Source of the DNA: Terebella lapidaria
Taxonomy: Eukaryota > Annelida > Polychaeta > Terebellida > Terebellidae
Direction: 5' to 3'
DNA: 64,000 nucleotides
Assembly: GCA_949152475.1 (NCBI GenBank)
Contig: OX424568.1
Span: 7,787,667-7,851,666, forward strand
Position numbers and translations under genes: made by a program. The notes below the pieces were generated by a model. The model ran no database searches and was not told the origin of the DNA. It worked only from the letters and a program-made list of their open reading frames with translations. Positions 10,595 to 47,056 of this stretch are shown in pieces (position 1 is the first letter of the stretch; each line of letters begins with the position of its first letter).

Positions 10595-10612
10595 GTAACT
10601 CTTTAAAAGAAA

Positions 10613-11728: not shown

Positions 11729-11857
11729 AAAACCTTCTGATTTGGACTTGACACAACTGGATAAGGATGCATGAAGACCCAGTTCTTGGGAAGGTTATTG
11801 GGAAGGACATCCAGTGAAAAACCTTCTGATTTGGACTTGACACAACTGGATAAGGAT
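11680..11857 (+). repeat. 89-bp tandem duplication in pol
   Basis: 11680-11768 and 11769-11857 look identical. 89 is not a multiple of three, so the duplication shifts the reading frame between RNase H and integrase. A further one-base change is needed to join the two frames, because the RNase H frame meets TGA while the other continues SSEKPSDLDL. Confidence 0.9.
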
Positions 11858-13587
11858 GTTGTTTTGTTATTGCGTCAATGGGACAAGTTGCATCTTCGGA
11901 ATGGTGTTCTGTTTCGTACAATTCAGAATGAAGGCCATGGGATGGATCAGCTTGTGGTCCCACGTCAGTGTCGATCAATGGTTTTGAGATCTTTGCATGA
12001 TGACATGGCTCATATTGGAAGAGACAGAACTGCAGATTTGCTCCGATCCCGTTTCTACTGGCCTGGTATGTTTGTGGATGTCGAGGAGTATGTCAAGAAC
12101 TGTACTCGGTGTATATGTCGTAAGGTTCCTGGTGATAAGGCTCCGTTGATTTCTATGACTTCTTCATACCCTATGGAGTTGGTCTGTATTGATTTCTTGA
12201 CTGTAGAACCTTCCAAGGGGTACGAAAACATCTTGGTCATGACTGATCACTTCTCGAAGTTTTCTCAAGCGTACCCAACAAGAAATCAATCAGCCAAGAC
12301 AACAGCTCGGGTTCTGTTTGATCAGTTCGTGGTGCATTATGGTGTTCCTGCAAAGTTGCACAGTGATCAAGGACGGAATTTTGAATCCCGAGTGATCAAG
12401 GAGTTGTGTCACCTTATGGGCATTAGTAAATCCAGGACTACTCCATATCATGCCATGGGGAATGGTATCGTTGAACGGTTCAACAGGACTTTGTTGCAAA
12501 TGCTTGGTACATTGGAGTCCGACAAGAAGAAGAACTGGAAGGACTACCTACCATCTGTCGTACACTCGTACAATTGTACCAAACACCCATCTTCGGGTTT
12601 TTCTCCCTACAAACTTATGTTTGGTCGTGACCCTAAGCTCCCTGTCGATCTTCAGTTCGGTTTGTCTCCGGATGGTGAAACCCAGAGTTTCAGCAAGTTT
12701 GTGGAAGATCTGGATGAGCAGTTACGGTATTCCTGGGAATTGGCAGCAAAGAATCAGCAGGTTGCGTCGGGTAGACAGAAGGATCACTATGATCAGAAAC
12801 AACGTGGTGTTATGCTGCAGGTTGGTGATCGGGTTCTCATCAGGAATGTTGGGTTGAAAGTCGTCACAAGCTTGCGGATAAGTGGCAGGATGTGGTCTAT
12901 GTTGTGCAAGGGCAACCAAATTCTGAGATCCCTGTGTTCCGTGTCTCTCCAGAGGGGGGAGGAAAGTGTAAGGTTTTACATCGGAATTTATTGCTTCCCA
13001 TCTCTTCTAAGGTGGAAACCGGGACAAGACCCATCGCTACTCCACGTGTTACCCGTCGTAAGACCAGGCAGTCTATTCCATTAGTCGGTTCAGGATCTGA
13101 GTCCTCTGAGTCTGAATCGTCAGACGAAGATTTTGTTGTTCTGGTTCCTGTGGTTGCTCCAGCAGATGAGGCCAGACTTGAGTCTTCTAACTCAGAGTCC
13201 GAAATGATTGAGGATCCTGTGTTGTCAGATGGTCAGCTTTCACCAGTTCCTTTAGTTCAGGATAGCCCTGTCGGCAGTGTGGCTTCACCACAGCTGGTCG
13301 ATATTAGCCCTGTTGGCAGTGTGGCTTCACCTCAACTGGTCGATCAGCAGTCTGATCCAGAGGACAGTCCTGTCCCAATTCCACAACCTCGTCGTAGTGT
13401 CCGGGAGCGCAAGCCACCAGCACGGTTCCAGTCGGATGGATGGATTTTAAACCACACTAACACTTCGGCACCTTCTGCTCCTGAGTGGATGCAGAAAGCA
13501 CAATTTCTTTTAAATGTTGCCATTAACTACTCACATTTGCCTGAATCGGTGTTGTTGGAAGTTATTTCCATGGTTAAGGGCACATAG
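11771..13587 (+). pseudogene. pol: gypsy-1 pol: integrase and C-terminal tail
   Basis: The zinc-binding HHCC region (HDDMAHIGRDRTADLL ... NCTRCICRK) is followed by a catalytic core with D in LVCIDF, D in HSDQGRNF and E in GIVERFNRTLL. Around 12860, after VLIRNVGLK, one base is missing: the original frame resumes as HKLADKWQDVVYVVQGQP and stays open to MVKGT at 13587. The tail is Ser/Glu/Pro-rich and contains a duplicated SPVGSVASPQLVD. Integrase would insert the cDNA in the nucleus; this copy would yield a truncated protein. Confidence 0.9.
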
Positions 13588-26892: not shown

Positions 26893-28330
26893 TTAATGTT
26901 TTATTTTCTTTTTTAATTGGGCCACTGACAATATATTGATATTTGCAATTTTGGAAAACCAATTGTTCCATACTCGTGGAAATTTAAATAAAGAAAATTT
27001 ACTTACAAATTCAGAATTTGGGTATCTAACTGCAACTAGATCAGATTGTCGTTTGCGGATCTGGTTGTATTTATTTAAATAAACTTTATATTTGCTAATA
27101 TTGTTGTTAGTCGGGTTATTTAATTTCTTTTTGTATAGTTTGTTCTTCCTTCTTAGTGAGGTGAGAAGGCCTATTGTGACCCAGGACTCACGCTTGATGA
27201 ATTTGTCATCTATCTTGGTAGATACAGTTGGAAAAGATTTCAAAAGATTTGTCGAAGAAAATGTTATATGCTAATTCAGGGCAATTAATATTAAGAATAT
27301 TGCGAAGTCAACTTGATTAAGAAGGTTGTTAAATTTGTTGATATTAGGTTCACTGAAGATCCTTTTGACAGTTGGTATAATTGTCAAATTTTGTTGTTGG
27401 ATGGTATCAACAATGTGAAATATGCCAAAATGGTCAGCGACATCTGTAATAACAATACCACTCATGCTATTTGATTTGGATATATTAGAATAGATATGAT
27501 CGATTAATGTCGCTGAGCTAGAAGTTATTCGAGTGGGCTATAAAATCTTGGGAATATATGACCTAGCTATTATGTTGTCAATATACTGGTTAGTGAATGA
27601 GTGTTCATTATATTTGAGCAAGTCTATATTCATATCTCCTAAAATAATATATTTCTTATTTTCACCATTGATTATGTCCATGGTCTCGTAAAGATTTTGG
27701 GCAAATATGTCAGTATCTGCTCGTGGCAATGTATTTGGTCGGTATATAACATCAACGATATATTTCGACATAGACGACGGCACTCTATCTGATGACACTT
27801 CAACAAACAGGGATTCATAAGTGCGCGGGATCATCACACTAAGATCATGTCTAATCTTGAAATTGATATTGTTCTTTACGAACAAAGCTACACCGCTTCG
27901 ATGGTCATCGTCCCGGGCTTGTACAAGTATATCATGGTACCCCACTAAGGACAATCTGGTATCTCTACTGCATTCAAAAGCTTCACTGATACCGACAAAA
28001 ATCAAATTGAAAAGATTCGCATGATATTTCATTTATGAGTTCTGTGAAAGATTCCCAATTAGCAGACAAACTTCTGCAGTTCAAGTAAAAATACGAAATA
28101 TTTGAGTTTGTTGCTCCAAGGACCTTGAGAGCCTCTTCTGGATCATAATATTTATTGTCACCATGGGTAGTAAGAGGTGGGTCTGTGTCATTGTCACACC
28201 AATAGTCAGACACATTATAAACGTATTCAAAATTGCGAATGATGTCAGTGCCAGTCACATTATCACGATCATTAGCCATTATCAAACGGTGATTCAATGA
28301 TGTCCCAGTTCCCGCTGCTCCACCCACAGC
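26893..28330 (-). pseudogene. Non-LTR retrotransposon relic: endonuclease present, RT missing
   Basis: Reading leftwards, the frame near 28330-28030 ends in YFYLNCRSLSANWESF, the start of an apurinic-type endonuclease. 28032-27538 continues with GISEAF, RSGVALFVKNN, FVEVSS, YRPN and YIILGDMNIDLL, the usual endonuclease motifs. 27465-27271 has SGIVITDVADHFGIFHIV (SDH-type end of the domain). 27243-26893 holds the linker RESWVTIGLLTSLRRKNKLY and then directly SKFSLFKFPRVWNNWF, typical of the extreme C-terminus. The whole RT is therefore absent. Several frameshifts make it non-functional. The EN type suggests a CR1/Jockey-like clade. Confidence 0.8.
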
Positions 28331-28499
28331 ACAAAACGAACAAACATAAATCTATCATACCAACATGTATGAGGGTTTGGCAATGCATAAAAAATGGTCC
28401 TATGCAATTGACAGAATGATTATTCATACAACGAGCATTTCAGGTCGCAGCTTCTAATTCGACTCATCTCACAAATTCACACCCTTCCACACAACAATG

Positions 28500-28623: not shown

Positions 28624-28642
28624 ACAACAGTGTTCAAAACAA

Positions 28643-28938
28643 TGAAGTGAAATCCGTTTACCTTAATTCTGTGCTGTATTGCGTTGATCTCTCTGCTGAT
28701 CGTCGGCCGATCCAGCAGACAGGTGAGTTGACGGCCGCCGGTGTGTGTGTCGATGTCAGGGTCCAATGCCTCTGTACTCGGTGAAAGCCAACGGTCAACT
28801 GACGCTCTTGCCCAGTCGAAGCTCCCTCCCAGGCACCAGCAGGTCACGTGCAGCCTCCCATTAATCCAATTGGGTTGCGCGGTACCACACTACCACGTAT
28901 ACAGCTTACTCAAGTTAAGTTACGTCATTTTCACTACA
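28643..28938 (-). repeat. 3' LTR of gypsy-2
   Basis: 296 bp; on the minus strand it begins TGTAGTGAAAATGACG and ends in TTCA. No difference from 41199-41494 was noticed by eye. Confidence 0.95.
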
Positions 28939-28952
28939 TCCTCCCCTGTTTT
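28939..28952 (-). promoter_or_regulatory. Polypurine tract of gypsy-2
   Basis: On the minus strand AAAACAGGGGAGGA directly precedes the 3' LTR. Confidence 0.85.
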
Positions 28953-29250
28953 AAAGAGCCCCACATGTTAAGAACTCCTCCCGATAATTCCGATACCCAA
29001 TAGCCACAGAATGCTAACAGCAACTGCGAACCACCAGGTACAAGCAAATGCCAAATATGTATAAAACCCAGATAAAATTCTTTATCGTGAAAGTGGGACA
29101 TGAAAACGATTTAGAGTTCTTGGCGTCAAATGGATTCAGCACCAGTAGCTGCAGAAAACCAACGGTTACTACGACCACGGGTGCAAAAACCACCCAAGGC
29201 CAAAAATAGTCAAATGGGCGCGGGACAAAATAACTAATTCTCCACTCAGT

Positions 29251-30995
29251 CTATCTCCAGGAGTGCAGGCTCGGGGTCCACTCCAGTCCGAAGAACTGAC
29301 GAGCGTTGCGGGTCGTCATGGCCATCACTACATCCCGTGGCAGGTTCTTGACAGTTCCGATCGCACGGCACAGCGGGCCAAGGGCCCAAGGGCTACGTCC
29401 AATGTACGGTGCGTCCGTCTCCAGTAGAACGTCGGCCAGATCCATTCGACGCAGGGTTTCTTCCATAGCACCTCGGAAAGCTGGCCGACGCAGTAGCTCA
29501 TTCAACCCGGACACTGTCTTTTTGGACAGCCGCTTCCAGGACACGACATCCTCTAACAGTGGACATACACTGGGTAATTACGGGGTATCACCTTGCGAAG
29601 CACCTCCTGGCATTCGTCCCGAGCATCAGAGTTGCCCTCAGCAGATCGGCAGTGTAGAACTAAGGGCTTGCCCAGCTCCACAGCCAAGGCTGCTGCACGT
29701 TCGAGGTACTCACGCTGTGCTGTCCTCTCCTCTTGCGAATGATGCGACTTGTAGTCCAGGCCGATTTCACCCACAGCGACAAAGCGTGGCTCTTGCAGAT
29801 TTTGACGCAGTTCCATTATGGCCTGTCCGGTCTCTGCCTCCGTCCTGCAGACGCTGGCTTCATGAGGATGCAAGCCCATGGTGAAAACTATCCTCTCCTC
29901 CTTCATCAATCGTTCCAGCCAATGCTGCGATTTCCTGAAGTTCAGCGAGCACACGATGTAACGGAGGGGTAGTGAATTTTGCCACTGGCACATCGCCCCG
30001 AGCTCTGCCATGACTGACTGATTGTCCTCTACCAGTAGCAGGTGCCGCTTCTGCAGAATCTGGTCCACATGGCAGTGGGCGTCGATGACGACTTCCTCAG
30101 GTGATGCAACTTCTTGGTCTACTGAGAAAACCCGCACTGCCTCCTGTTGCTCCGGGGAGAGACCCTCCATTAGTGATGCCAATGCTGCCCAGTGAGTGAA
30201 AACACTCACGGAGTTGGGTGGCCTCAGTGTGTAATCAACCCGGGGAACCACCCCCCACGCTCGGTCGTAAGAGCTCATCAACGCTTGCTGCAGAGGGCTG
30301 AGCACGAAAGTTGGATCTTGAGGAAACAACTTCTTCTCCACCACGTAGGCGAGCAACCCATCATCATGACCACACCCCAAACATTTCATCACAAACTCCA
30401 TCACGCCCCTCATTAAGCCCAACCACTTCCGGAGGTTGTGGTTGTCGAATCCACTATGGCAATCATGCCCAGGAACCTCCCAACTATGCTGGTTTACAAT
30501 GTAGCCGCTTGAGTCCTCCACCACGTGGCAAGTCCAGCAACACCGATCAGGGCTGGTGTACCACGGCAGGTGCTCCGAGCTCACGTGGCGCCGCATCTTC
30601 TCCGCCACGATTACACCGCACAGGCGACAAGCCTTCGGGTTCTTCTTAGACGGACCCGGGACACCGGGTGGAGACACTTCCCGCTTCCTTTTGCTTCCCT
30701 CTGACCAGGGAACAACTTGAACGGTCCGACGCTCCTCCGGCTCCTCGCTCGCGACCGCTCCATCATTGCCTGCTTTTCCTGCTTCCACAGTGCTCGCCAC
30801 CCCTCCGATGGCAACCATCTTCTCACATGACACAGTCCGTGTCTCGTTGCCACCCGCCACAGTCACTCGCAGCTCCTCTCCTTTCCTCACCACCACTTCC
30901 CTCGGCTCCCTAGCCACTCCCAATCCTGACTCCTCCACCTCTTCCTCCTGAGCCTCTTAATAATCCGGCACAAAATCACCCTCCGACTCGCTCAT
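29251..30995 (-). pseudogene. gypsy-2 ORF3: C2H2 finger plus TatD-family nuclease
   Basis: Starts 72 nt after the pol stop at an ATG (30995) reading MSESEGDFVPDY, meets a premature TAA at 30957-30959, then stays open to 29553. Near residues 95-150 is a C2H2 finger (CRLCGVIVAEKMRRHVSSEH) and a second Cys/His cluster (CCWTCHV...HSWEVPGH). From about residue 300 a TatD metal-dependent hydrolase follows with HxH in DAHCHVD, GLHPHEA, the metal-binding Glu in AVGEIGLDY, His in LVLHCR and in VYVHC, and, after a small frameshifting loss near 29552, Asp in LLETDAPY and the tail RNARQFFGL. TatD proteins are 3'-5' DNases. All metal-ligand motifs are kept, so the ancestral ORF was probably active. Role in the element is unknown. 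Confidence 0.9.
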
Positions 30996-31067
30996 ATTCC
31001 TAGGAGAAAACAATTCATAGTTTTTAATATAGTCCTTCCCCCTCCCCCTACTTAATTAGGAATGGCC

Positions 31068-34000
31068 CTAATCCCGAACAAAGTCTTTTAAACACGCTGG
31101 GGTCTTCAGATTTCGGCCACTCCGGCTCCGCTTCGGAGTCTGAGTAACACTCTTCGACTCCTCCACACCAATGTCTGGATTTTGTGAAGACGACTCCGTC
31201 CTGGCTTCTTCCACTTGTTCCTTGTTGGAAGGTCGACTCTCGGAAGGACTCTCGGTAGGATTCCCGGGAGGAATGGGTGGCAAGAAAAACAAATCTGTCA
31301 ATCCCAGTTCGTCTAAGGCTTTCTCCCTATCTTTCGTCTCAGTGTTCGGATTATCCAGCAACTGCAGTTGGTGTCGCTTACGGCGGACCCACAGAGGGAT
31401 ATCTCGGTCTCTGCAAAGCCTCAGCCGATCGTGATGAACTACTTGAGACTTCTTGCGACCTTGTATTCGATACAGGGCTGGTGACAACCTTTCCAGAACT
31501 ATATAGGGCCCTATGCAGACCGGACGTAGTTTGTTGCTATGACCCACTTTTGTTGCAGAATCGATTTTATACACTAAGTCGCCTACATCATACTGTCGGA
31601 AATTGAGCCGTTCATTGTAGGTGGACTGTTGTCTCTGTTGGCTCTGCCTAATGTGTTTACGAGCCTCATCATGAGCTTTCTTCATGTTAGCCGTCAATGA
31701 CACGACGTACTCCGGTATCCCACTATGACCATCATTTTCCAATGCCACGCCGAACAGATGATCTGGCAATGACACCTCCCGACCAAGCATCAAGTAGTTC
31801 GGTGTATACCCAGTGTTCCTATTAATCATACTACGCATCGCCATCCCCAGTAAAGGAAGATGGACGTCCCATAACTTCTGGTCATCTCCAATGTAACTAC
31901 GAATCGCCTGAAGTAGCGTTCTATTATACCGTTCAACCTGACCGTTTGAGCTGGGGTGGTAAGGGGTCGTACGTGTTTTGGTGATTTCTAAGGCATCACA
32001 CAGCTCTCGAAAGAGGTTACCATCGAAATTCCTTCCCTGGTCAGTGTGTATCTGGTACGGAATCCCAAAACGGCTGTTGAAGTTGTCGATCAAAGTCCTA
32101 CACACCTGCTCAGCTGATTGATCGGGTACTGCATGACATTCTATCCACTTCGTAAATTGATCTATGATCATAAGCACATACCGATTCCCACGATTACTTT
32201 CCACGAATGGTCTTAACATATCGATGTGGATCCTCTGCATCGGCATGCCAGCATGATAACTTCCCAATGCTGCCCTTGCTTTTCGATTCGCCCTTTTACT
32301 CATGCTGCACACAGCACAGGTCCCAACATAATTTTGAACGGCAAGATACAATTGCGGCCAATAAAAACTGTACTTCAGTCGCTCTCTGGTCTTGGCAATA
32401 CCATAATGGCCCGATGTCTTGTGGTCATGAGCCAACTTCAGCGCTTCCTTTTTCAGACTTTCTGGCATTACTAGTTTCAGACGACTTGGTGTCCCGCTCT
32501 CCTCCCACTGGTAATACAAAGCTTCATTTAGAACCAATTGTGCTCGATCCCTCCATAGACGCTTCACAAAAGGACTTTGCAGACTGAGTTCCGCTTGTTG
32601 GGGCTCTGTGCCCGTCTCCAACCACTTCATGATCACAGACAAATCTGGATCTTCTCTCTGAAAAGATGCTAGCTCGGCCTTAGAATAGACGCCCAACGAC
32701 AAGCACTCCGCTGTCCCTGACACGCTTCTGATGGAAATCGGAACAACGTCATCCACATCTAACTCAAACCTTTCCCACTGTCTGTGAACTCTGCTACAAT
32801 AAGCACAACCTCCACATGGTAGCGATTCTAGATGCACACCAGCTTCGTAACAGCTACAAAAGTCATTTTCTGGTTTCCGTGACAAGGCATCAGCATTGGC
32901 ATGCTTAGCCCCCTTCCTATGAACAATCTGCATGTCATATTGACTTATCTCTTCCAACCATCTCGCAAGTTGACCTTCAGGGCTTTTAAACCTCGTCAAC
33001 CACACTAGACTACTGTGATCCGTGCGAATGATGAAAAGTCTACCCAACAGGTAATACCGAAACTGTCTTGTAAAAGCGACCAACGCAAGGAGTTCTTTCC
33101 TCGTCGTACAGTACTTCCTCTGTGCTGGAGATAAACTTTTACTGGAGTATGCTATCGTCCTTTCTACACCTTCTTGAAGTTGAGACAACTCTGCCCCAAT
33201 AGCCCAGTCACTGGCATCTGTATCCAGGATGAACACATCATCTTTGTTCGGAAAGGCTAGGAACGGATGACAGCTGGTTATCTCTTTCAGCTTCTCAAAA
33301 GCTGCCTGATGATCTTGGTTCCAGACGAAATTGTCCTTGGCATGAATTCGCTTGTATAACACTTCTGTGATCTCTGCATACCTTGGGATAAACTCCCGAT
33401 GGTAATTCATGTACCCCAGGAATGATTCCAGCTCTTTCTTGTTGGTGGAGACTGGCCAGGACTGTATCGTACTGATTTTCTGATCTGTGATAGTGATGCC
33501 TTCGCGGTTAACCTTTTTGCCTAGGAAATCCACTTCAGTGCGAAATAGGCAGCACTTCTTTGGTTTCAGTTTCAAGTTAAAATGTCGAAATCGGTCAAAT
33601 ACTTCCTGTAGATTGTCAATCCCCTCTTCGAACGTCTTGGCCAGTATTATCACATCGTCTAGATACGCCAACACCCTATCCCAAGTAAGACCCTTTAGCA
33701 CCGTGTTCATGGCTCTCTGAAACGTAGCGGGCGCGTTACAAAGCCCAAACGCCATACAACGGTGTTGGAACAACCCTTGCTTCGTAATGAACGCCGTCTT
33801 GTGCCGATCATCCGGGTGGACCTCTATCTGCCAGTATCCACTGGCTAGGTCAAGCGTGCTGAACCACTGTGAGCCATGCAGCGTATCCAAACACTGACTA
33901 ATCAATGGTAACGGGAAGGCATCCTTCACCGTTCTGGCATTCAAATCACGAAAATCGACGCAGTACCGGACGGAACCATCTTTTTTCCGTACCAACACGG

Positions 34001-35048
34001 GAGCCGACGCCCACTCTGATTGCGATTCTTCAATGACTCCTGTCTTCAACATTTTTTGTAGATGAGCTGCTTCTTCCCCTTCAAAACCAATTGATGTTCG
34101 GCGCACACGATGATGAACTGGCTTCGCACCGCGGGTATCAATTCGGTGTTGCGTCCCAGCAAAGCTACCCAAATCGAAATCATGTTGTGCGAAAACATCA
34201 CCATACTGTGACAATAAGTTGCCCAGCATGACCTTCTGGTCATCACTTAGCTGTTGGCTACTACTTTCCCACAATTGCACGAGATGCTCTGGTAGCTGTG
34301 ACCGCACCGCCTCAACATCCAACAATTCTTCAGCATTGGTGACTTGGCCCACCAGTACTTCTTCAACTGGCGCCACAGGTTCCGTACCCGCTACTTGCAT
34401 TACTTCCATTGCATTTCCTACCCATCGGCCTCTCTTCATCGTCACGAATCGATCAGAAAGATTACAAAAATCCAAGGTTGCTTCCGAATTGTTACTGACC
34501 AGCGACCTAGATGCCATCAGTGGGTCATTCAACGAGATGGTTTCTATCACATGATCAGGACCTTGGTTGCAAGTACCTGCAACCGTGCAAGGAACGAGCT
34601 TATGACTCCACGGTGGTATCACTGTTCGCTTAGCCACCGTCACTCTATGTATACAAGATGAATTCTCACCAGAAGACTGGAAGCTCACCAAGTCTTTTCC
34701 AAACTGGATTGTTGCATTATTGAGATTGATTATTGCTTCTCTTGCTGTAAGCAGATCGTTGCCCAACAATATATCATCTGCGATATCGGATGCTATCAAA
34801 TCCCAGTCGAAGCTGCTCTGACCAATGGTCATCTTCACATTGCATAACAGCATACCCATCGTGCCTGGGCCCTGAAATGCCCCACTAAGTTTAATTCTTG
34901 GAGTATTCGCCGTAATAATCAGTCCACATACAGCCGCTATCCTAGTGCTAATGATAGTCGCCTGGGCCCCAGTATCAACTGTGCCCCTCAAGCAGTGACC
35001 TCCTACCATGACTGGAATGTGAATTGATATGCCTGCCTTCATTTCCAC
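31068..35048 (-). CDS. pol: gypsy-2 pol: protease, RT, RNase H, integrase
   Basis: A single 1326-codon frame. An aspartic protease (VDTGAQATIIS, near residue 25) comes first. RT follows with CVDFRDLN (~364) and the catalytic YLDDVII (~459), then RNase H with DTDASD (~609). Integrase has the zinc HHCC region (HYGIAKTRERL...CAVCSMSK), D in IHIDML (~941), D in HTDQGRNF (~1001) and E in NGQVERYNRTLL (~1036), and a GPY/F module (GPYIVLERLSPALYRI). The length is normal and no lesion is seen inside. The first codon is GTG and is not a real start: the polyprotein is expected from gag-pol translation through the frameshift at 36496-36502. In this copy the 929-bp duplication separates it from that signal. 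Confidence 0.95.
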   Translation of the reverse strand: MEMKAGISIHIPVMVGGHCLRGTVDTGAQATIISTRIAAVCGLIITANTPRIKLSGAFQGPGTMGMLLCNVKMTIGQSSFDWDLIASDIADDILLGNDLLTAREAIINLNNATIQFGKDLVSFQSSGENSSCIHRVTVAKRTVIPPWSHKLVPCTVAGTCNQGPDHVIETISLNDPLMASRSLVSNNSEATLDFCNLSDRFVTMKRGRWVGNAMEVMQVAGTEPVAPVEEVLVGQVTNAEELLDVEAVRSQLPEHLVQLWESSSQQLSDDQKVMLGNLLSQYGDVFAQHDFDLGSFAGTQHRIDTRGAKPVHHRVRRTSIGFEGEEAAHLQKMLKTGVIEESQSEWASAPVLVRKKDGSVRYCVDFRDLNARTVKDAFPLPLISQCLDTLHGSQWFSTLDLASGYWQIEVHPDDRHKTAFITKQGLFQHRCMAFGLCNAPATFQRAMNTVLKGLTWDRVLAYLDDVIILAKTFEEGIDNLQEVFDRFRHFNLKLKPKKCCLFRTEVDFLGKKVNREGITITDQKISTIQSWPVSTNKKELESFLGYMNYHREFIPRYAEITEVLYKRIHAKDNFVWNQDHQAAFEKLKEITSCHPFLAFPNKDDVFILDTDASDWAIGAELSQLQEGVERTIAYSSKSLSPAQRKYCTTRKELLALVAFTRQFRYYLLGRLFIIRTDHSSLVWLTRFKSPEGQLARWLEEISQYDMQIVHRKGAKHANADALSRKPENDFCSCYEAGVHLESLPCGGCAYCSRVHRQWERFELDVDDVVPISIRSVSGTAECLSLGVYSKAELASFQREDPDLSVIMKWLETGTEPQQAELSLQSPFVKRLWRDRAQLVLNEALYYQWEESGTPSRLKLVMPESLKKEALKLAHDHKTSGHYGIAKTRERLKYSFYWPQLYLAVQNYVGTCAVCSMSKRANRKARAALGSYHAGMPMQRIHIDMLRPFVESNRGNRYVLMIIDQFTKWIECHAVPDQSAEQVCRTLIDNFNSRFGIPYQIHTDQGRNFDGNLFRELCDALEITKTRTTPYHPSSNGQVERYNRTLLQAIRSYIGDDQKLWDVHLPLLGMAMRSMINRNTGYTPNYLMLGREVSLPDHLFGVALENDGHSGIPEYVVSLTANMKKAHDEARKHIRQSQQRQQSTYNERLNFRQYDVGDLVYKIDSATKVGHSNKLRPVCIGPYIVLERLSPALYRIQGRKKSQVVHHDRLRLCRDRDIPLWVRRKRHQLQLLDNPNTETKDREKALDELGLTDLFFLPPIPPGNPTESPSESRPSNKEQVEEARTESSSQNPDIGVEESKSVTQTPKRSRSGRNLKTPACLKDFVRD

Positions 35049-36251
35049 TGGCTGGACCTTCCCAGGTACCCCTTACTCTTCAAGTACTTGTTCAGTCTCA
35101 TCTGCAGGTGGTTGCACCAGGTGCGACGGTGTCAAACATTTGATGCCATCCAATTGGGGTGGAGTTCCTGGGCTCCCATTACACCCTACAACAATGCCTT
35201 CGGCACTCTGACTGCCCGGAGGCTGAACAAAGTGATGTGGTTCCAGGCAGATAACTCCATCCGGAATTCTACCCCCATTGTCAACACTCTTGTCTATTCC
35301 AACTGCTTGGAATCCGGATTCACTTGCATTACTTCCATTGCATTTCCTACCCATCGGCCTCTCTTCATCGTCACGAATCGATCAGAAAGATTACAAAAAT
35401 CCAAGGTTGCTTCCGAATTGTTACTGACCAGCGACCTAGATGCCATCAGTGGGTCATTCAACGAGATGGTTTCTATCACATGATCAGGACCTTGGTTGCA
35501 AGTACCTGCAACCGTGCAAGGAACGAGCTTATGACTCCACGGTGGTATCACTGTTCGCTTAGCCACCGTCACTCTATGTATACAAGATGAATTCTCACCA
35601 GAAGACTGGAAGCTCACCAAGTCTTTTCCAAACTGGATTGTTGCATTATTGAGATTGATTATTGCTTCTCTTGCTGTAAGCAGATCGTTGCCCAACAATA
35701 TATCATCTGCGATATCGGATGCTATCAAATCCCAGTCGAAGCTGCTCTGACCAATGGTCATCTTCACATTGCATAACAGCATACCCATCGTGCCTGGGCC
35801 CTGAAATGCCCCACTAAGTTTAATTCTTGGAGTATTCGCCGTAATAATCAGTCCACATACAGCCGCTATCCTAGTGCTAATGATAGTCGCCTGGGCCCCA
35901 GTATCAACTGTGCCCCTCAAGCAGTGACCTCCTACCATGACTGGAATGTGAATTGATATGCCTGCCTTCATTTCCACTGGCTGGACCTTCCCAGGTACCC
36001 CTTACTCTTCAAGTACTTGTTCAGTCTCATCTGCAGGTGGTTGCACCAGGTGCGACGGTGTCAAACATTTGATGCCATCCAATTGGGGTGGAGTTCCTGG
36101 GCTCCCATTACACCCTACAACAATGCCTTCGGCACTCTGACTGCCCGGAGGCTGAACCAAGTGATGTGGTTCCAGGCAGATAACTCCATCCGGAATTCTA
36201 CCCCCATTGTCAACACTCTTGTCTATTCCAACTGCTTGGAATCCGGATTCA
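34394..36251 (-). repeat. 929-bp tandem duplication across the gag-pol linker and protease
   Basis: 34394-35322 and 35323-36251 are nearly identical (one difference noticed, CTGAACAAAG versus CTGAACCAAG). CTTG stands at both ends and at the junction, so the duplication arose at a 4-base microhomology. 929 is not divisible by three, hence the upstream protease copy (35294-35977) runs out of frame at the junction. Confidence 0.95.
35294..35977 (-). pseudogene. pol: Upstream duplicate of the protease region
   Basis: Repeats the first about 215 residues of pol, including VDTGAQATII, then reads into NPDSKQLE and a stop caused by the junction. It is preceded by the in-frame TAA at 36002-36004, which is shared by both copies. 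Confidence 0.9.
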
Positions 36252-36538
36252 CTTGATGCCTCCCCCTGCTCAGATATGGACCCTTCCTGGATTTCCCTGT
36301 TGCCCGGACTATCCCCAGTCAAAGAGAGCTTCCGGAATGAGGTGCAAAGCTGGTCAAAATGGTCTGGTGCTTGAGGTGACTTGCCATCTCCTACACGCTT
36401 AGACTTCGTCGTTCCCACGGTTACCATTTCTTTGCTTCTGGCCACGAGGTTGAGATCTAGGGCTGAGTCTTGGCCAGTGGACTCGCCCCGCTCGAGTTTA
36501 AATGACCCCCTCTGTTTGGTGAAGTCGACCCCCGACAT
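36002..36538 (-). CDS. gypsy-2 gag-pol linker in the -1 frame
   Basis: This frame overlaps the end of the nucleocapsid frame and is the one entered by a -1 shift at UUUAAAC (SFKLERGESTG...). It encodes a hydrophilic linker with the pattern HHLVQPPGSQSAEG...SHLVQPPADETEQVLEE, then UAA. The UAA is in the same frame as the protease that follows (GVPGKVQPVEMKAG). Either it is a nonsense mutation older than the duplication, or a second recoding site. Confidence 0.7.
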   Translation of the reverse strand: MSGVDFTKQRGSFKLERGESTGQDSALDLNLVARSKEMVTVGTTKSKRVGDGKSPQAPDHFDQLCTSFRKLSLTGDSPGNREIQEGSISEQGEASSESGFQAVGIDKSVDNGGRIPDGVICLEPHHLVQPPGSQSAEGIVVGCNGSPGTPPQLDGIKCLTPSHLVQPPADETEQVLEE

Positions 36539-38341
36539 CCTTTGTTACAATCTCTTCGGAAATGACCTTCCTCGCCACAGTTGAAACAAACTAGTGACCC
36601 CGATTTCTCAGATTTCAAAGGACAGTCGGCTTGCATATGATCTCGCTTCCCACAACGGAAACATCCTCTTGGAGAAGGTGACCTGGAGTAACCCCTATTT
36701 TGTCTCAGAACATTCTGGATCTCTTGCATGTTTGTCACAAACATACCCTTCATGCTTGATGCCAGAGCTTTTGACAGCTTCTCACAGAATACATCTTCTC
36801 CAAATGATGGCAGATTCCTGATGAACACTCTTATCAGTAGCTACCAGACGTTCCCGTCCTGAACGGTCCCTTGTCACCGCTTGGCGGACTGGCACTTCCT
36901 CATACTCCTGTTCAAAATGAACCTGTCGGGTCGAGGCTGACCCCTTTGTAGAGTAACCGAAGATTTTATGGTTACAGATAGCCTTCTTCACATAAGCCAA
37001 TGCCTTGCTTATGCTCTTGGGATCCTTGTCCCCAGCATGGAATGCTGCTGATCGATCTCGGCAACCCCTCAGAAAGGCGTCCACAGCAAACTCGTTCATC
37101 ATCCTTGTACCGATCCCTGGGTATCCATCCAGAGTAAGACGATACACTCGGTCCGCAAAATCATCGAGGGACTCCTGTTCTTCCTGCATAACATGATGCA
37201 GCTGCTTCCTGAGATTCTTCGCCGTGTATCCATGTCCGTACCTCTTCTTCAGTGCCCTCAATAGCAGGTGGTAGTCATGGCGGACATGACGTGGTCGTGT
37301 GCTGACAAATGCTATCGCTTTGTCTCTCAGACATGCCATCAGGTATTCAAGGCGGGCTCTGTCGGGCAGATGGTGCGCTCTGACAGTCTGCTTGAATTGA
37401 AAGCTAAAGGCCCTCCACTGTGAGGAATCACCATTGAATGTAACCATCTTTGGGGCGGGAGGACTCCTCCTCCGTCTTCGGTGCTGATGTCCCACCGCAT
37501 GTTCCATGTCATCCTCGGATTCCTCCGTGCTGGACTCTGAGCTAACCAACTCCTCGTCACTGGAGTCACTCTCTGCAGAGGAGTAGCGTCCTCTTGGTCG
37601 TCGTATTGCTGGTGGTGAATGCTGGCGCCCTGGACGTTGTGGCTCAGGTCTTCCCCGACGATCTTCCCGCTCCAGTGGAGGGTTTTGTCTCGGTCTTCGT
37701 TGCAATGGCCCCGAACCGTTGTCCTGCTGTCGTCGTCCAGTGGGCGACTGGTACGGCCTTCCCCACTCAGCAGAATAGTCACGTGTGGGCCGCTGGAACT
37801 GGCCCTGCCCTGGAAACATGCCGTGAAGTGGTTTTCGGTCCCTAGACAATGATGGCGTCCCCACGGAACGACCTGGAACATGCTTTTCCTCCTGTCCTGA
37901 TAACCCTGATTCTGAGGGAAACTGCGGCTGACGGCGGTAAACATTAGCTATCGGGTAACAGCCCCTCATCTTGTCTGTCGGAAAAGATGATCCTCCTGAT
38001 GGTTCCATTTCTAATGATGATCTGAAGTCTTCGTACCCGGTGTTTGACTCATACTTCGCCTTTCCTGACTTCCTCTGGTCTCTCGAACAGTGCAGATCTT
38101 GCTTTTGAAGAGCTACTTCCTCCTGGTTCTTATAATACGCCAGCTCTGCCCTCAGACGCTGGAGTTCGGCCTGAGCATCAGACTCAGGGTTCCTGGAGTC
38201 GCATGTAGCACCAACGCTGGTTTCATCCTTACTGGGTGGCTTATAGCTACAGCTTTGTGGAACGCGCATTATCAGATCGTCATTGATCAGATTGGCAAAA
38301 TGCTCAGCTGGCAAGTTGGTGGCCATCACTAGAGCCTCCAT
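36457..38341 (-). pseudogene. gag: gypsy-2 Gag with two CCHC zinc knuckles
   Basis: ATG at 38341 (MEALVMATNLPAEH). A charged, low-complexity N-terminal half (Arg/Pro/Gln-rich, then a Ser/Glu acidic run) precedes a capsid-like helical region (FSFQFKQTVRAHHLPDRAR ... ALKKRYG ... LDDFADRVYRL). Near 36829 the frame breaks by one base. In the other frame the nucleocapsid continues (VFIRNLPSFGEDVF) with knuckles CFRCGKRDHMQADC and CFNCGEEGHFRRDC, ending at TAG 36457-36459. Gag forms the particle and binds RNA. The break means only a truncated Gag would be made from this copy. Confidence 0.85.
36461..36502 (-). promoter_or_regulatory. Programmed -1 ribosomal frameshift signal
   Basis: On the minus strand the heptamer U UUA AAC (36502-36496) is correctly phased with the nucleocapsid frame (CAT TTA AAC). 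Six bases later GGGGCGAGTC can pair with GACTCAGCCC around a 10-base loop, with one bulged A. The zero-frame stop TAG lies at the foot of the stem. A -1 slip leads exactly into the linker-protease frame. Confidence 0.85.
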
Positions 38342-38342
38342 G

Positions 38343-38447
38343 CTAATGGGTAGTGTAGTTTTGTAGCTGCTGGATCTCCCTTGCCCGCTTCTCCCCAATA
38401 GAAGGCAAGGTCCTGAGCTCCTCCAGGGTGGCTGTGTTGAGATCCAT
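38343..38447 (-). CDS. HhH (ComEA-like) reading frame upstream of gag
   Basis: From an ATG at 38447 the frame reads MDLNTATLEELRTLPSIGEK followed by RAREIQQLQNY and ends in TAG. It is open further upstream without ATG to about 38555. The LxxLPxIGxxxA pattern is a helix-hairpin-helix, a sequence-independent DNA-binding motif. Its TAG is one base before the gag ATG (TAGCATG). Either a one-base shift has split an HhH-Gag fusion, or the frames are coupled by termination and reinitiation. Family knowledge cannot decide here. Confidence 0.7.
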   Translation of the reverse strand: MDLNTATLEELRTLPSIGEKRAREIQQLQNYTTH

Positions 38448-41179
38448 CTTGGTAGCTATCTCAATCTCTTGTCTTACTTCTGGTGACAGGTGCACTGATA
38501 TATTGTTTAAGCCAGACCCACAGAATGTCTTAGACAACTGCCGGATTTGACCCAACTATAACAGTGGCCTATACTACAGTTAGAGCTCAGTCGTTTATCG
38601 GGAGCACGTACTGCCACACCCTCCGCAATGGACACAGAATATCTATGACAACTGTACAGTCCAATCCGAAGTTCATGGAAGTAGCACCACCACAAAAGTA
38701 ACTGCCAACCCTAATTAGCCGATGCCTGAAGCCTGAAATTAGACTCCTAGTCCTCACTCTGTATTGTCAAATTTAAAACATTAAATTTTGATTAAGACCA
38801 GGTGAACAGAATGTCAACGACAGCTGAACAAGCTGGCCTTCTAACCAGAAACTGTGCCAGATATTCAGTTACCAATTGGCTGATTACTCCTATTTACCCA
38901 CTACAAACTAAACCTAATCCTTATGCTGGAGTGTGAAGAATGCCGACGGCAGCTGCACAAACCAACACACAAATCTACTAAATATATTTAATATTATCCA
39001 GACTCAATCAAGAGAACAGAATGTCACCAACAACTGCCCCCTTAATAGAATCCCAGTTACTATTAATTTAATTTAGGCACTAGGTTGGACAATAGGCTGT
39101 CAACGACACCTATTAAATCCTATCCAGAAATTTATCACTAGGTGCTAGCCTAACTAAGTTTAAACCATTTTAAACTCAAGACCTATTAATGAAATTCTCA
39201 GCTGGTTTCCAGTTGGTCTTCTGGCTGGCTCTCGTCAATCAAGGCGTACACCCGATCCTTGATGCTGGTTCATCCAGTCGACGCCCGTTGCCAATGTTTC
39301 ATGAATTCTCCAAGATTTTCCAACGAATGCTAAGATTTCCGTGGTGCACAATCGAAGCTTGTGATCTAATCAATCACTCACACAAACACACCACACTGAC
39401 TAAACCTAGACAAGCATAAACCCCAAAATATATATATATTTTTTTTGTAGTGTATGGAAATGTAGCAAAGTGTTTATAAACATACAAATAACTCATTCAC
39501 TCAATATAGCGCGTGACCAATAGGCTGCCTTTTGTCCAACCCTGGCCAGGTGCTAAATCTGATTCACACAACAATCACACAGGAATAACCCACATCAAAC
39601 CAGGCCTACACCAGAGAACACTTAACAGCTAAACTGTTACAGAAAATGCTAAAAGCATTGACTTCAACTGGAAGCAAACGGGTTAACGTGTTATGTAACA
39701 GCTGTCAATTTTGAAAACATACTGGCCGACCACCAGTTACCGTACACGAGTAAGATTTACTGACAATACACACAATTTAGCCAACATCCAGCTGTTACAT
39801 ACTAAGACATAGAGTTTACAAGAACAATGCACAAATAACCTCCCGTCCTAGTTGTCAATTGAAAACTCGAGTAAGTCTTACATTCAAACCATTAAAGGTT
39901 GACAACTAAACGGCTGGCTAGATGTAATAAATGGTTTAGTAATAACTGACGTTACCAAAAGGCGGTGTATACTATACTACAGCAATCTAAATGACTAACA
40001 CATTGACTAGAGTGGTTAAATGATAAATTTGAAATGATAAATAAATACAACTAAAGCCTAAAATGTAGTTAAGAGTTGCCTACCAGTACCACATCAGCTC
40101 AACCTGACGGCTTACGTCACTGTCAATTTCCAATGACTAATTAATAATTTTATATCGCGATGAGAAGTCCAACGGACACTCACAACAGCTACTATTACCA
40201 AAAATTGATAACAGTTTGCCTCTAATATTCAAGCGGAAAGACCTGAAGTTTACAAGCCGAAAATAACTAATTAAGTTCGCAATGAGAATTCCAACGGAAA
40301 CTCAATGCGTAGAATTTATTTGCATTCTTTGCCTAACTTTGATCACAAAGTGCTAAGTATTTAATTCCTAGTGCAACAACTTAACCAATCAGATATTTTG
40401 TCAAAGTTTACTTTCCTGGTTAGCGGAATAATTAGTGAAACCTATTTGACTGAGCAGAGAGAATTCCTATGGAAACTCACTACTCCGCGTTTACTATAAA
40501 TTATTTTACTCAATAACTACATTTCCCAGTTGAGTACTATTAAATTCAGAATCTCGCCAATTTTTTCTAACACATAATCTGGGCTATGAAATACACGTTT
40601 ACCGAATTCTGATGCGAGAATTCCAACAGAAACTCACGACAGAATATACAACCTAGTCACTATAATCTAAGGTGATATTTATATAATCTATTTAGAGTCT
40701 AAGTCCACTACAGGAAAATATATTTAAACTGGAATCTATTGTTCAGAATTTATTATCAACCGGTCGATTTAGAATATTAGTTCACTACTGAGAGAACTCC
40801 GAAGGACACTCAAAGCAGTGGCTATTTAACCCCAGTGCCTACAATACAGCCTGCCCTAAACACAAAGTCAGAAGTTTATAAACTACGCAGTAGGCTATCT
40901 GCAATCTTAGCAGAGATTTTAGCAGAGAATTTTATTCTAGAACTGCATAACAATGTAGAATTTTTCCGATTAATCAAGTGTATTTACAACTGTATTTCCA
41001 GGAAATTCTTGACAAGTGATCACGTCACCCAACGTTCTTGACTTGACCTCAGTTCAAGCCTAGGAAAATTCCACTAGCGTGTGATCTACTGGCTCAAATT
41101 TTCCGTCAATCTCTCGCCTATTGCCCGCGAAATTTAGTTCGTTTGATGACAGATTCTAACGGATTTCCACTACTTCTTC
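38448..41179 (-). other. Long leader of gypsy-2 with recurring motifs
   Basis: No long frame is present in 2.7 kb between PBS and HhH/gag. Two families of short motifs recur (plus-strand reading). GAGAATTCCAACGGAAACTCA and variants stand near 40162, 40283, 40457, 40614 and 40790. GAATGTCAACGACAGCTG and variants stand near 38809, 38938, 39016 and 39090. These may be packaging or protein-binding sites. Confidence 0.6.
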
Positions 41180-41197
41180 ACCCTGCTCGCAGCGCCA
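41180..41197 (-). other. Primer-binding site of gypsy-2 (tRNA-Ser-like)
   Basis: One base after the LTR, the minus strand reads TGGCGCTGCGAGCAGGGT. The complement would end a tRNA as CCCTGCTCGCAGCGCCA, similar to serine tRNAs of the UGA type with one acceptor-stem difference from the human sequence I recall. Confidence 0.7.
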
Positions 41198-41198
41198 A

Positions 41199-41494
41199 TG
41201 AAGTGAAATCCGTTTACCTTAATTCTGTGCTGTATTGCGTTGATCTCTCTGCTGATCGTCGGCCGATCCAGCAGACAGGTGAGTTGACGGCCGCCGGTGT
41301 GTGTGTCGATGTCAGGGTCCAATGCCTCTGTACTCGGTGAAAGCCAACGGTCAACTGACGCTCTTGCCCAGTCGAAGCTCCCTCCCAGGCACCAGCAGGT
41401 CACGTGCAGCCTCCCATTAATCCAATTGGGTTGCGCGGTACCACACTACCACGTATACAGCTTACTCAAGTTAAGTTACGTCATTTTCACTACA
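41199..41494 (-). repeat. 5' LTR of gypsy-2
   Basis: 296-bp partner of 28643-28938, identical by eye; followed by target duplication ACAA. Confidence 0.95.
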
Positions 41495-41498
41495 ACAA

Positions 41499-45530: not shown

Positions 45531-46568
45531 AGGTTACCGGACCTATGGTCCGATAACCTATTGGCATGGCGTTGTGTCCGGCGTCCATCCGTCCGTCCGT
45601 TGTCCGTCCACATTTTTATCTTTAAAGTTTACGGTCGAATCTTTCTGAAATTTTGCTCAAAAATAGCTAAAGATATTCCCGGGAAAGGTTTTTTTTCGTT
45701 TTTTATTTTTCGCATTTGCCTCAAAATGGCGGCCATTTTCGTTGAAAAATGCCCAATTTTGGACTTTGACGGCCATTTTCTCAAAAACTGTTCAGACAGT
45801 TTTGAGATTTTTGTTTCAAAAGATTCCCCTTATGGACCTCTGTGATGTGTATAAGTTTGGTTGCCCTTGAATCGCCGGTCTGCGTGTGGCGGCCATTTTG
45901 AATTTCTGACTAGTCGGCGAAAAATTTCCACCCCAAATCGCATTACTATCCATTTTGGGCCATTTCCAGGGGGAAAAAAAATTTCATCCTTTGAAAAAAA
46001 TTTTGGACTTAGAAAACCTTCATAATGAGAGCTGGCATAACTGTACTCATGGAACGCCTGAAGATAGAGCTTAGAAATTGGCACTTTCGAATGGAAAGTC
46101 ATATATGGCGACTTGTGTGGTGACCTTGAATTTGACCTTGGATGACCTTAAAAGGTCAAAACAGCCATTTCTGTGTCAAAAAATGCCCAGATTTGCCTCT
46201 ATAGAAATGCTTGCAGATAAAGCTTATGTTTGCATATAGGAAGACATATATGGTACAACTAATGATGACCTTGAACTTGACCTCAGATGACCTTGAGTGC
46301 CAAATGTCTGACTCGGAATGTGTACATGGGCCTGAACGGCCTATACACTTGCACCCAGACGTATCTTTGTATTTTGAACATATAGAAAATCAAATACCGC
46401 ACCCGTACATGTAATGGTGACATTGAAGTTCACATGGATGACCTTGATTGGTAAATCTCATGGTCATAATGTTCACACTGATAGCCTTGATTGATAAATC
46501 TCAAGGTCTATTACATTCCATAATCCAAACCAAAATTGTTCAGTAACCTATCTTAGCCTTTGGGCTAA
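45531..46568 (+). mobile_element. Helentron-like element, copy 2
   Basis: Begins with the same 29-bp palindrome as 1486-1514 and ends AGCCTTTGGGCTAA. Five T precede and six T follow. It has no long minisatellite but retains TGACCTTGAATTTGACCTT. The minus-strand NADAR frame continues on both sides, which fixes both ends of the insertion to within the T run. Confidence 0.8.
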
Positions 46569-47056
46569 TTTTTTCCTTTCCAAAGTGACGTTTCCAGAAC
46601 ATTCTCGTCACTTAGATGAATTCCGATGCCCCAGTTTGTATCCTTGGAGGCTTCCCCAAGTGACTTCTTTCCGGTTGTTACTAGGAAGTCGTGATATGCT
46701 GAGATTTGGGTGAATTTTGCTCGGATGCCGTTCTCCATCACTTTCGGGCCTGTGGATGACCATCTGTATGGAGTCTTCACACTGTCGCCAATTGACTTGG
46801 CCTGTTCTGGGTCACAAGAGTACAAGATTTTTTGCGCAGCAGCCTCGCCCTTGGCTACCACAGCTTTCTGGTGCTGGTGGTAGTGCTCTACTGCGTTGAA
46901 GGTGGTCCCATCTACTTCGAAGTGGCCCACAGCAAAGTTGCTCAATGGCGAGTACCTGCCGAGGAATCCCACCGATGAGGAGTCTTCTTTAGTGTGGATT
47001 GGAAATACTGGCTCTGGCTCGTCTGAACACCGGGAGGAGAATACGTCTGCGATTTG
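46569..47056 (-). pseudogene. NADAR (YbiA/DUF1768) domain frame
   Basis: Open from 47056 (after TAG) with SDEPEPVFPIHTKEDSSSVG leading into RYSPLSNF, the family's hallmark, then NAVEHYHQHQKAVVA, DSVKTPYRW, VMENGIRAKF and LWKGKN. The apparent stop is the first TTAG of the inserted repeat and is not native. No ATG begins this frame; it was fused to ORF1 upstream. Confidence 0.8.

What the first reader, a model, noticed from the sequence alone, without database searches (positions are those of the whole stretch)
29251..30995. Gypsy element with a third ORF encoding a C2H2 finger and a TatD-family nuclease
Seen: between integrase and the polypurine tract, in the same orientation as pol and inside identical LTRs, lies a ~580-codon ORF with a Cys/His finger and every TatD metal-ligand motif (HxH, GEIGLDY, LHCR, VHC, ETDAPY). 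Known: gypsy elements may carry an env-like third ORF, and TatD enzymes are 3'-5' DNases. Inference: the element captured a host TatD gene. The nuclease may process cDNA ends, trim tRNA-primer remnants, degrade competing DNA or protect against nuclear sensing. I do not know of a described LTR family with this ORF.
Basis: partly seen in the sequence, partly recalled or inferred. Interest (0 to 1): 0.88.

Follow-up and report, generated by a model that had tools for sequence, protein, structure and literature searches.

The report
Jumping genes that carry a nuclease

Summary
The element is real: a 12.85-kb Ty3/gypsy element (identical 296-bp LTRs, TTGT duplication, gag, pol) with a third gene between integrase and polypurine tract. 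In this copy that gene is broken (early stop, later frame change), not an open ~580-codon ORF. It is no one-off: the genome gives 152 TatD matches (host exons and fragments included); 79 of 85 near-complete ones have the same N-terminal domain directly upstream. All 22 TatD loci fetched with long upstream flanks have gag and/or pol before them on the same strand; all 7 long two-LTR copies of the window's family carry TatD. ORF3 and pol trees share main clades, the TatD domains group beside a spliced host gene, metal ligands are kept, and dN/dS is about 0.1 in the best-preserved subfamilies (0.4-0.9 in some pairs). Best reading: one old capture, inherited under selection, perhaps expressed by splicing. 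One subfamily apparently amplified without pol but with gag and ORF3. Function is inferred: most likely a nuclease acting on the element's own replication intermediates. Separately, 12 covarying 20-nt hairpins occur, within the window, only in the element's 5' leader and 3' UTR. Closest precedent: DEDDy-exonuclease ORF3s of bdelloid LTR elements.

The parts
41199..41494 (-). 5' LTR (296 bp, TG...CA)
   Evidence: 25 genomic matches, 17 of them at 97-100% identity over the full length
28643..28938 (-). 3' LTR, identical to the 5' LTR
28639..28642 (.). target-site duplication ACAA (+ strand), other copy at 41495-41498
   Evidence: read by eye
41181..41198 (-). primer-binding-site-like stretch directly after the 5' LTR; tRNA not identified
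   Evidence: read by eye
38447..41198 (-). 2.75-kb 5' leader with 10 of the 12 hairpins (20-mers starting at 40811, 40635, 40478, 40303, 40181, 39036, 38955, 38826, 38654, 38540)
36457..38446 (-). gag, frame-broken: helix-hairpin-helix-like N-terminus (recalled motif, by eye), DUF1759 match, two zinc knuckles
31068..35042 (-). pol ORF, 1324 aa from ATG: protease, RT, RNase H, integrase
34393..36250 (-). ~929-bp tandem duplication of the protease region
   Evidence: 300-nt repeat core 100% identical; spacing 929; extent read by eye
31000..31001 (-). AG of a candidate splice acceptor; exon would start at 30999, 4 nt before the ORF3 ATG
   Evidence: rank 4 of 1022 AG in the element by a simple PWM with recalled weights; 147 of 6856 AG in the window score as high; mixed support in other families
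29251..30995 (-). ORF3: acidic N-terminus with PDY motif, Cys/His domain, TatD domain; broken by an early in-frame stop and a later frame change
29556..30086 (-). first part of the TatD domain (HxH, GEIGLDY, LHCR, VHC)
   Evidence: Pfam PF01026 profile 1-154
29254..29556 (-). last part of the TatD domain (ETDAPY), other frame
   Evidence: PF01026 profile 185-253
29007..29171 (-). two further hairpins in the 3' UTR (20-mers starting at 29171 and 29026)
28939..28950 (-). polypurine tract AACAGGGGAGGA
   Evidence: read by eye

Best explanation
This is one broken copy of a Ty3/gypsy LTR retrotransposon from a diverse group in which ORF3, a fusion of a Cys/His (zinc-ligand-like) N-terminal domain and a class II (HxH) TatD nuclease domain, was acquired once, apparently from a host TatD gene of TATDN2 type, and has since been inherited together with gag and pol under purifying selection (supported by trees, context and dN/dS; the TATDN2 assignment is recalled). 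ORF3 may be translated from a spliced subgenomic RNA whose acceptor sits just before its start codon (suggested, mixed evidence). The protein most likely works inside the element's own replication: the N-terminal domain tethers it to the element's RNA or DNA, and the TatD barrel trims 3' ends or removes RNA or damaged nucleotides from reverse-transcription intermediates (inferred from the family's known 3'-5' exonuclease and AP-endonuclease activities).
For: 152 TatD matches in the genome (216 candidates, 150 scored; host exons and fragments included), many with open frames of 494-605 codons, groups with identical scores on several chromosomes. 79 of 85 near-complete TatD places have the N-domain directly upstream, same strand. 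22 of 22 TatD loci fetched with several kb upstream have gag and/or pol on the same strand: 17 with pol (L022 and L024 only a C-terminal part), 5 with gag and only the last ~67 pol codons. LTR pairs flank the set in 13 of them. Two spliced host TatD loci taken along (L033, L034) showed no gag or pol match. In the window's own family 7 of 7 long two-LTR copies carry TatD just inside the 3' LTR. ORF3 and pol trees of 9 families share (window, L019), ((L013, L015), L020) and (L009, L010, L018); Mantel r 0.535, 104 of 20000 permutations as high. The 10 TE TatDs form one clade (0.994), next to a spliced host gene (0.927) when rooted with prokaryote sequences. HxH, Glu, both His and Asp are kept in 12 of the 13 loci aligned; L027, a decayed frame, has lost some. 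dN/dS 0.105 pooled over the 15 pairs of six copies of one subfamily, 26 synonymous-only against 10 amino-acid-changing variant codons, p 5e-10; 0.06-0.12 in another. E. coli TatD is a 3'-5' exonuclease on ssDNA and RNA (PMC4176340, abstract); human and bacterial TatDs also cut AP sites (PMC10085689, abstract).
Against: Some ORF3 pairs have dN/dS of 0.4-0.9: L002 and L004, of the same subfamily but left out of the pooled figure because their frames differ in length, with others; L010/L032; L014/L016; window/L016; L012/L025; L036/L037, as decaying copies would. No transcript or biochemical data. AlphaFold of the N-domain from two sequences failed (mean pLDDT 37.5), so its fold and ligand are unknown. 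Splice acceptors: by PWM the best AG near the ORF3 start beats 95% of random 60-nt stretches in only 2 of 10 families and 90% in 5 of 10; the simpler YAG rule (10 of 10) was set after looking. The loci fetched were chosen by distinct frame length and score, not at random. In the TatD tree the host sequences are exon pieces, branches are long, and midpoint rooting puts the root between the TE clade and all others. What the nuclease acts on is inference only.
Confidence: 0.5

Rival explanations
1. Same element group and gene, but the nuclease serves counter-defence: it degrades or disarms host nucleic acids used against the element (piRNA precursors, cytosolic DNA sensing, RNA:DNA hybrids), rather than processing the element's own intermediates.
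For: ORF3 evolves faster than pol (mostly about 30% against about 50% identity between families), as an arms-race gene might. [quoted passage not shown] recalled).
Against: dN/dS well below 1 in the youngest intact subfamilies; retention beside gag in pol-less copies fits a part of the replication machine as well or better.
Confidence: 0.25
2. ORF3 is used as a non-catalytic nucleic-acid-binding or structural protein; the TatD fold is kept for binding.
For: Catalytic loss with binding kept is known for DEDD nuclease derivatives in piRNA biogenesis (PMC5408684, passage); ORF3 identity between families falls to 27%.
Against: The metal ligands are kept in 12 of 13 loci aligned.
Confidence: 0.12
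3. The gene is a passenger: a host gene carried by chance in one lineage, without function for the element.
For: This window's copy is broken; a 3.6-kb deletion copy without ORF3 exists (L038); some pairs show relaxed dN/dS.
Against: Ten divergent families with long open frames, largely congruent trees and dN/dS near 0.1 in the best-preserved ones.
Confidence: 0.04
4. The TatD protein is mainly a host gene family, and the neighbouring gag and pol are coincidence or repeats inserted near it.
For: Annotators call such ORFs TATDN2: a giant-squid figure legend lists a putative TATDN2 among non-Hox ORFs in the Hox cluster, beside a pogo-related ORF (PMC6962438, passage).
Against: gag and/or pol before ORF3 on the same strand in 22 of 22 loci, LTR pairs of 96.97-100% identity around 13 of them, constant 348-349 bp to the 3' LTR in 5 of 7 family copies.
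Confidence: 0.01

Closest known systems
Bdelloid rotifer LTR retrotransposons (Vesta, Juno) with DEDDy-exonuclease or GDSL-esterase ORF3 (Rodriguez et al. 2017, PMC5408684; abstract and passages seen)
   Same: LTR element with a captured enzymatic ORF3 after pol; a 3'-5' nuclease that may act on RNA or ssDNA ends; authors say ORF3s typically come from spliced messages; invariant residues intact, with DEDD changed to DEED.
   Different: Unrelated nuclease fold (RNase D/DnaQ-like against a TatD TIM barrel). There the ORF was acquired at least twice and is shared with Penelope-like elements, and the authors saw no significant departure from neutrality; here the data fit one acquisition, largely pol-congruent, with purifying selection in the best-preserved subfamilies, and a fusion to a Cys/His domain.
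Orchid Ty3/gypsy elements with an AlkB m6A demethylase ORF (PMC9289625; abstract and one section read)
   Same: Ty3/gypsy lineage with a captured nucleic-acid enzyme present in many consensus sequences.
   Different: Enzyme and host differ; TatD is not among the domains named in the section I read.
TATDN2 and class II TatD nucleases (PMC10085689, PMC4176340; abstracts and one section each)
   Same: HxH motif and the other metal ligands; TE TatDs lie next to a spliced host gene of this genome. TATDN2 proteins of higher eukaryotes also have extended N-termini.
   Different: The TE proteins have their own N-domain (CxxC...H...H, CCWxC...H) and acidic PDY start motif, and are encoded in LTR elements. 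Human TATDN sequences were not in my tree.
env-bearing gypsy elements and retroviruses (recalled)
   Same: Third gene at the env position; candidate splice acceptor directly before its start.
   Different: No env-like Pfam match; a TatD enzyme instead. Transmembrane segments were not predicted.

Membership tests
Ty3/gypsy LTR retrotransposon | LTR pair TG...CA with target-site duplication | tested here: met
Ty3/gypsy LTR retrotransposon | pol order protease-RT-RNase H-integrase | tested here: met
   order of Pfam matches along window:31071-35072:-
Ty3/gypsy LTR retrotransposon | gag with capsid-like region and CCHC zinc knuckles | tested here: met
   DUF1759 7.6e-8; zf-CCHC 5.9e-14, two stretches; frame-broken in this copy
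Ty3/gypsy LTR retrotransposon | PBS matching a tRNA 3' end, and PPT | tested here: inconclusive
   PPT and a PBS-like stretch read by eye; no tRNA was compared
Ty3/gypsy LTR retrotransposon | place in a named gypsy clade by RT phylogeny | not tested
   no reference gypsy pol set was at hand
TatD nuclease, class II | TatD profile match over the whole domain | tested here: met
   (two pieces in this copy); the best genomic matches cover profile 1-253
TatD nuclease, class II | HxH plus Glu, two His and Asp metal ligands | tested here: met
   (12 of 13 loci; L027 decayed); ligand list and classes from PMC4176340 section 13 and PMC10085689 section 12
TatD nuclease, class II | nuclease activity | not testable with these tools
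   -
C2H2 zinc-finger protein | match to a C2H2 family model | tested here: not met
   no zf-C2H2 match; C-x2-C-x10-H-x4-H motif only
env-bearing gypsy element or errantivirus | env-like glycoprotein in ORF3 | tested here: not met
   ORF3 matches TatD, and AP_endonuc_2 below its cut-off; no env family. Transmembrane prediction not run
DEDDy-ORF3 elements | RNase D or DnaQ-like nuclease in ORF3 | tested here: not met

The most novel reading that the evidence does not exclude
A clade of LTR retrotransposons has made a TatD nuclease a core replication gene beside gag and pol: ORF3 acts in cis on its own RNA/cDNA complex, so that even pol-less, trans-mobilised derivatives keep gag plus ORF3. In the window's branch a repeated 20-nt hairpin in both untranslated regions is the recognition site that marks the RNA for packaging or for ORF3.
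Probability: 0.3. Interest if true: 0.85.

Novelty: new variant of a known kind. Interest (0 to 1): 0.72.

Why it matters
Third genes of LTR retrotransposons are usually env-like or of unknown use (recalled; compare PMC5408684). Here an enzyme is shared by divergent gypsy families with long open frames and measurable selection, which makes 'why would a retroelement need its own 3' nuclease?' directly testable, and suggests that ORFs annotated TATDN2 in invertebrate genomes may sometimes be retrotransposon genes. The pol-less but gag-plus-TatD elements separate what must be supplied in cis from what can be supplied in trans. The covarying hairpin array is a ready candidate for a packaging or recognition signal in a gypsy element.

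Tried and rejected
Single large intact ORF in this copy: rejected. One-off insertion: rejected. Host gene with introns: rejected for the loci examined. Relatives in IMG/VR contigs and in prokaryote genomes: none confirmed. Protein searches: one clear relative of the whole N-domain-TatD type, P0001, 298 aa on a 1062-base metagenome contig, 51% identical over 42% of the query (where the other 20 hits are ordinary TatDs; the only match). The region search found nothing, not even P0001, so its negative counts little. Fold of the N-domain: pLDDT 37.5, not used for fold searches; the second structure job and the fold searches were not used. Rfam over the element: no match up to E 5. Hairpins as a general mark of the clade: not supported. 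With model R1 they appear in the window's family and its L019/L029 relative, but not in the leaders L030/L031, nor convincingly in the other stretches searched (weak hits in L017, outside its LTRs, and L023); for several families the leader was not held. Hairpins as relics of a larger tandem unit: rejected for the window (flanks at background identity), although in L029 several copies sit in a local ~92-nt tandem array. Species: not identified.

Full report
1. The element. Exact 299-nt direct repeats lie at 28640-28938 and 41196-41494. Read as TG...CA they are 296-bp LTRs (28643-28938 and 41199-41494) with TTGT on both outer sides on the element's strand, a PBS-like stretch after the 5' LTR and a purine tract before the 3' LTR (by eye). 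The element is on the minus strand. Pol is one ORF of 1324 aa with protease, RT, RNase H and integrase in gypsy order; gag has a DUF1759 match and two CCHC knuckles and is frame-broken; a ~929-bp stretch with the protease is tandemly duplicated.

2. ORF3 in this copy. The TatD match is strong (E 3.3e-27 and, for the rest in another frame, 2.5e-6). The frame opened by the ATG at 30995 stops after 12 codons, reopens for 467 codons, and changes frame inside the TatD domain. The finger is a motif (C-x2-C-x10-H-x4-H, then CCWxC...H) without a Pfam zinc-finger match, but its Cys and His are invariant in the 15 sequences aligned (window, 13 other loci, P0001).

3. The family in the genome. The genome search was busy many times and then answered: 761.6 Mb, 438 contigs, 152 TatD matches at E <= 0.001 (216 candidates, 150 scored, so a lower bound; the number includes fragments and exon pieces of host genes), many with open frames of 494-605 codons and with identical scores on different chromosomes. 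The N-domain has 131 matches (232 candidates, 131 scored). Of 85 TatD places with near-complete profile coverage (start <= 4, end >= 209, copied's printed list, which is cut at its weak end), 79 have an N-domain match directly upstream on the same strand (I pasted about 108 of the 131 N-domain rows, leaving out short weak ones, none of which lies beside the 6 misses). The 6 others were not examined.

4. Context. I fetched 22 TatD loci with several kb upstream (L009-L020, L022-L027, L032, L035-L037), chosen from the list by frame length and score, not at random. All 22 have gag and/or pol on the same strand upstream of ORF3: 17 have pol (about 37-99% identical to the window's pol; in L022 and L024 only a C-terminal part), 5 (L012, L017, L026, L035, L037) have gag and only the last ~67 codons of pol. 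In L023 the gag match is on the other strand. LTR-like pairs flanking the set were seen in 13 loci (9 within one stretch, 4 between adjacent stretches) at 96.97-100% identity; L025 shows only an 83% pair, L010/L032, L013, L018 and L036 showed none in the stretch held, L016's pair came, and L024 and L027 were not compared. Of the eight short loci with 1.5-kb flanks (L001-L008), 6 show the end of pol upstream; L001 (same place as L009) and L002 do not. Two spliced host TatD loci (L033, L034) showed no gag or pol match.

5. The window's own family. The LTR has 25 matches, 17 at 97-100% over its length: 8 same-strand pairs and one single LTR. Seven pairs span 11.9-18.5 kb, and all 7 contain a TatD match just inside the 3' LTR: 348-349 bp away in 5, 262 in one truncated match, 615 in the window copy where only the first TatD part matched. 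The eighth pair spans 3.6 kb and has lost ORF3 and most of pol (L038). The 7 N-domain places at 86-100% identity lie in these same 7 copies. Several of these copies also have broken ORF3 frames.

6. Inheritance and selection. In 9 families ORF3 and pol trees share the groups (window, L019), ((L013, L015), L020) and (L009, L010, L018); they differ inside the last group, where ORF3 pairs L009 with L010 (0.943) and pol pairs L010 with L018 (0.600), and at a deep node (0.619 in pol, 0.838 in ORF3); Mantel r 0.535, 104 of 20000 permutations at least as high (L019 and L010 pol are partial, which distorts some identities). In a TatD tree the 10 TE domains form one clade (0.994), next to a spliced host gene on C1 (0.927) if the 12 prokaryote or metagenome TatDs are the outgroup, with another spliced host gene outside. 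Caveats: host rows are exon pieces, branches are long, midpoint rooting would put the root beside the TE clade, and calling the C1 gene TATDN2-like is my recall. dN/dS (Nei-Gojobori type): 0.105 pooled over the 15 pairs of six copies of the 501-codon subfamily (L003, L005-L009), 26 synonymous-only against 10 amino-acid-changing variant codons. L002 and L004 of the same subfamily were left out because their frames differ in length; their pairs give 0.42-0.79. Others: 0.06-0.12 for L013/L022/L023; 0.22-0.29 for L024 with these and for L020/L027; 0.4-0.9 for L010/L032, L014/L016, window/L016, window/L014 (0.47), L012/L017, L012/L025, L025/L026 and L036/L037. Pol for comparison: 0.26 (L013/L023), 0.31 (window/L014), 0.33 (window/L016), 0.71 (L010/L032). 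So the best-preserved families show purifying selection on ORF3; in the window's own family ORF3 looks less constrained than pol (0.47-0.79 against 0.31-0.33), on few changes, and two of these three copies are broken or rearranged.

7. Pol-less elements. In the 534-codon subfamily 5 of 6 sampled copies lack pol; the remaining pol match begins at the same residue in all five, which suggests one deletion. They keep a gag frame of 611-633 codons, and 3 of the 5 keep ORF3 in one 534-codon frame; LTR pairs are 99.6-100% identical. L036 is a pol-bearing relative with a 1466-codon pol frame. ORF3 differences among the three intact pol-less copies are 14:3, 14:7 and 14:6 synonymous to nonsynonymous (p 9e-7 to 5e-5 against neutral sites; pairs not independent), while three gag pairs give about 0.6-1.0; but L036 against L037 is 4:11, so recombination with pol-bearing copies cannot be excluded. 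This favours, without proving, a role of ORF3 in cis.

8. Expression. A candidate acceptor ends 4 nt before the ORF3 ATG in the window, rank 4 of 1022 AGs in the element; 147 of 6856 AGs in the window score as high (weights recalled). In the ten families compared, a YAG lies within 12 nt upstream of the start in 10 of 10 (background 0.25-0.42 per ATG), 7 of 10 with a pyrimidine tract (background 0.02-0.10). But that rule was set after looking, the families are related, and by PWM the best AG beats 95% of random 60-nt stretches in only 2 of 10 and 90% in 5 of 10. A splice donor was not established (the LTR-end candidate ranks 15 of 864). The ORF3 start carries a conserved acidic PDY motif in most families, also in P0001.

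9. Mechanism. Established for the family: 3'-5' exonuclease on ssDNA and RNA (PMC4176340, abstract) and AP-endonuclease activity (PMC10085689, abstract). A review states that TATDN2 resolves R-loops by degrading RNA (PMC12754012, passages). With the metal ligands kept in 12 of 13 loci aligned I take ORF3 to be an active nuclease, tethered by its N-domain, working on the element's reverse-transcription intermediates; the substrate is inference.

10. A second finding in the same element. A 20-nt hairpin, xAG-n-4bp-3nt-4bp-UU-CUx, occurs 12 times on the sense strand: 10 in the 5' leader and 2 between ORF3 and the PPT. A sequence-only scan (AG-N12-TTCT) found 11 sites in the leader (9 with all four stem pairs, one with three, one with one) and 2 in the 3' UTR (both with four), against 0 of 29 with four elsewhere in the window. 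On the 12: paired cells 97.6% (shuffled 76.7%), 18 double changes (shuffled 7.0) and covariation score above all 500 shuffles, but the number of pairs with double changes (42 of 500) and of further pair types (78 of 500) are not clearly above shuffles (rows were chosen partly for pairing). Flanks are at background identity. A model built from them finds these 12 in the window (E <= 1.3e-4; next hit E 0.85). It also finds the array in another copy of the family (10 in L028 and 2 in L014), in a relative with about 66% identical pol (8 in L029 at E <= 1e-3, several of them in a local tandem repeat, and a weak one, 18.2 bits, in L019's 3' UTR), and in the deletion copy L038 at both ends (6 hits, E <= 0.0041). 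It was not convincingly found in other families, for some of which the leader was not held. A packaging or recognition signal is my guess.

11. Literature. Searches for TatD with retrotransposon (14 papers), gypsy (3) and transposable (27, 25 listed), and related terms with capped listings, listed no described TatD-bearing retrotransposon; I saw listings, not the texts, of nearly all of them, and the library is open-access only. The nearest precedent is the bdelloid DEDDy ORF3 (PMC5408684, abstract and passages).

Noticed in passing
window 38540-40811 and 29007-29171 (minus strand); L028, L014, L029, L019, L038: A covarying 20-nt hairpin repeated 12 times, within the window only in the element's 5' leader and 3' UTR; also in a relative with about 66% identical pol and in a deletion copy.
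   Followed up: yes
window 34393-36250; L016: A ~929-bp tandem duplication of the protease region in the window copy; L016 has a pol piece 5' of gag. Both may be template-switch rearrangements.
   Followed up: partly
L012, L017, L026, L035, L037: Non-autonomous elements that lost pol but keep gag and ORF3, with nearly identical LTRs.
   Followed up: yes
L038 (G000:C14:21713250-21716920): A 3.6-kb deletion copy with LTRs, leader and 3' UTR hairpins and part of gag but no ORF3.
   Followed up: partly
PMC6962438, Hox cluster legend: A putative TATDN2 and a pogo-related ORF are listed among non-Hox ORFs in the giant squid Hox cluster; perhaps copies of such an element.
   Followed up: no
window 10607-13587 (+): A second gypsy-like pol fragment (RT, RNase H, integrase by reading) without a TatD ORF seen.
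   Followed up: no
window 27538-28351 (-): LINE-like endonuclease reading frames (by eye) close to the element's 3' LTR.
   Followed up: no
window 46568-47056 (-): ORF with a NADAR domain (Pfam E 2.5e-25).
   Followed up: no
L019 1799-2667: An antisense gag piece lies inside the end of the TatD gene of this copy.
   Followed up: no
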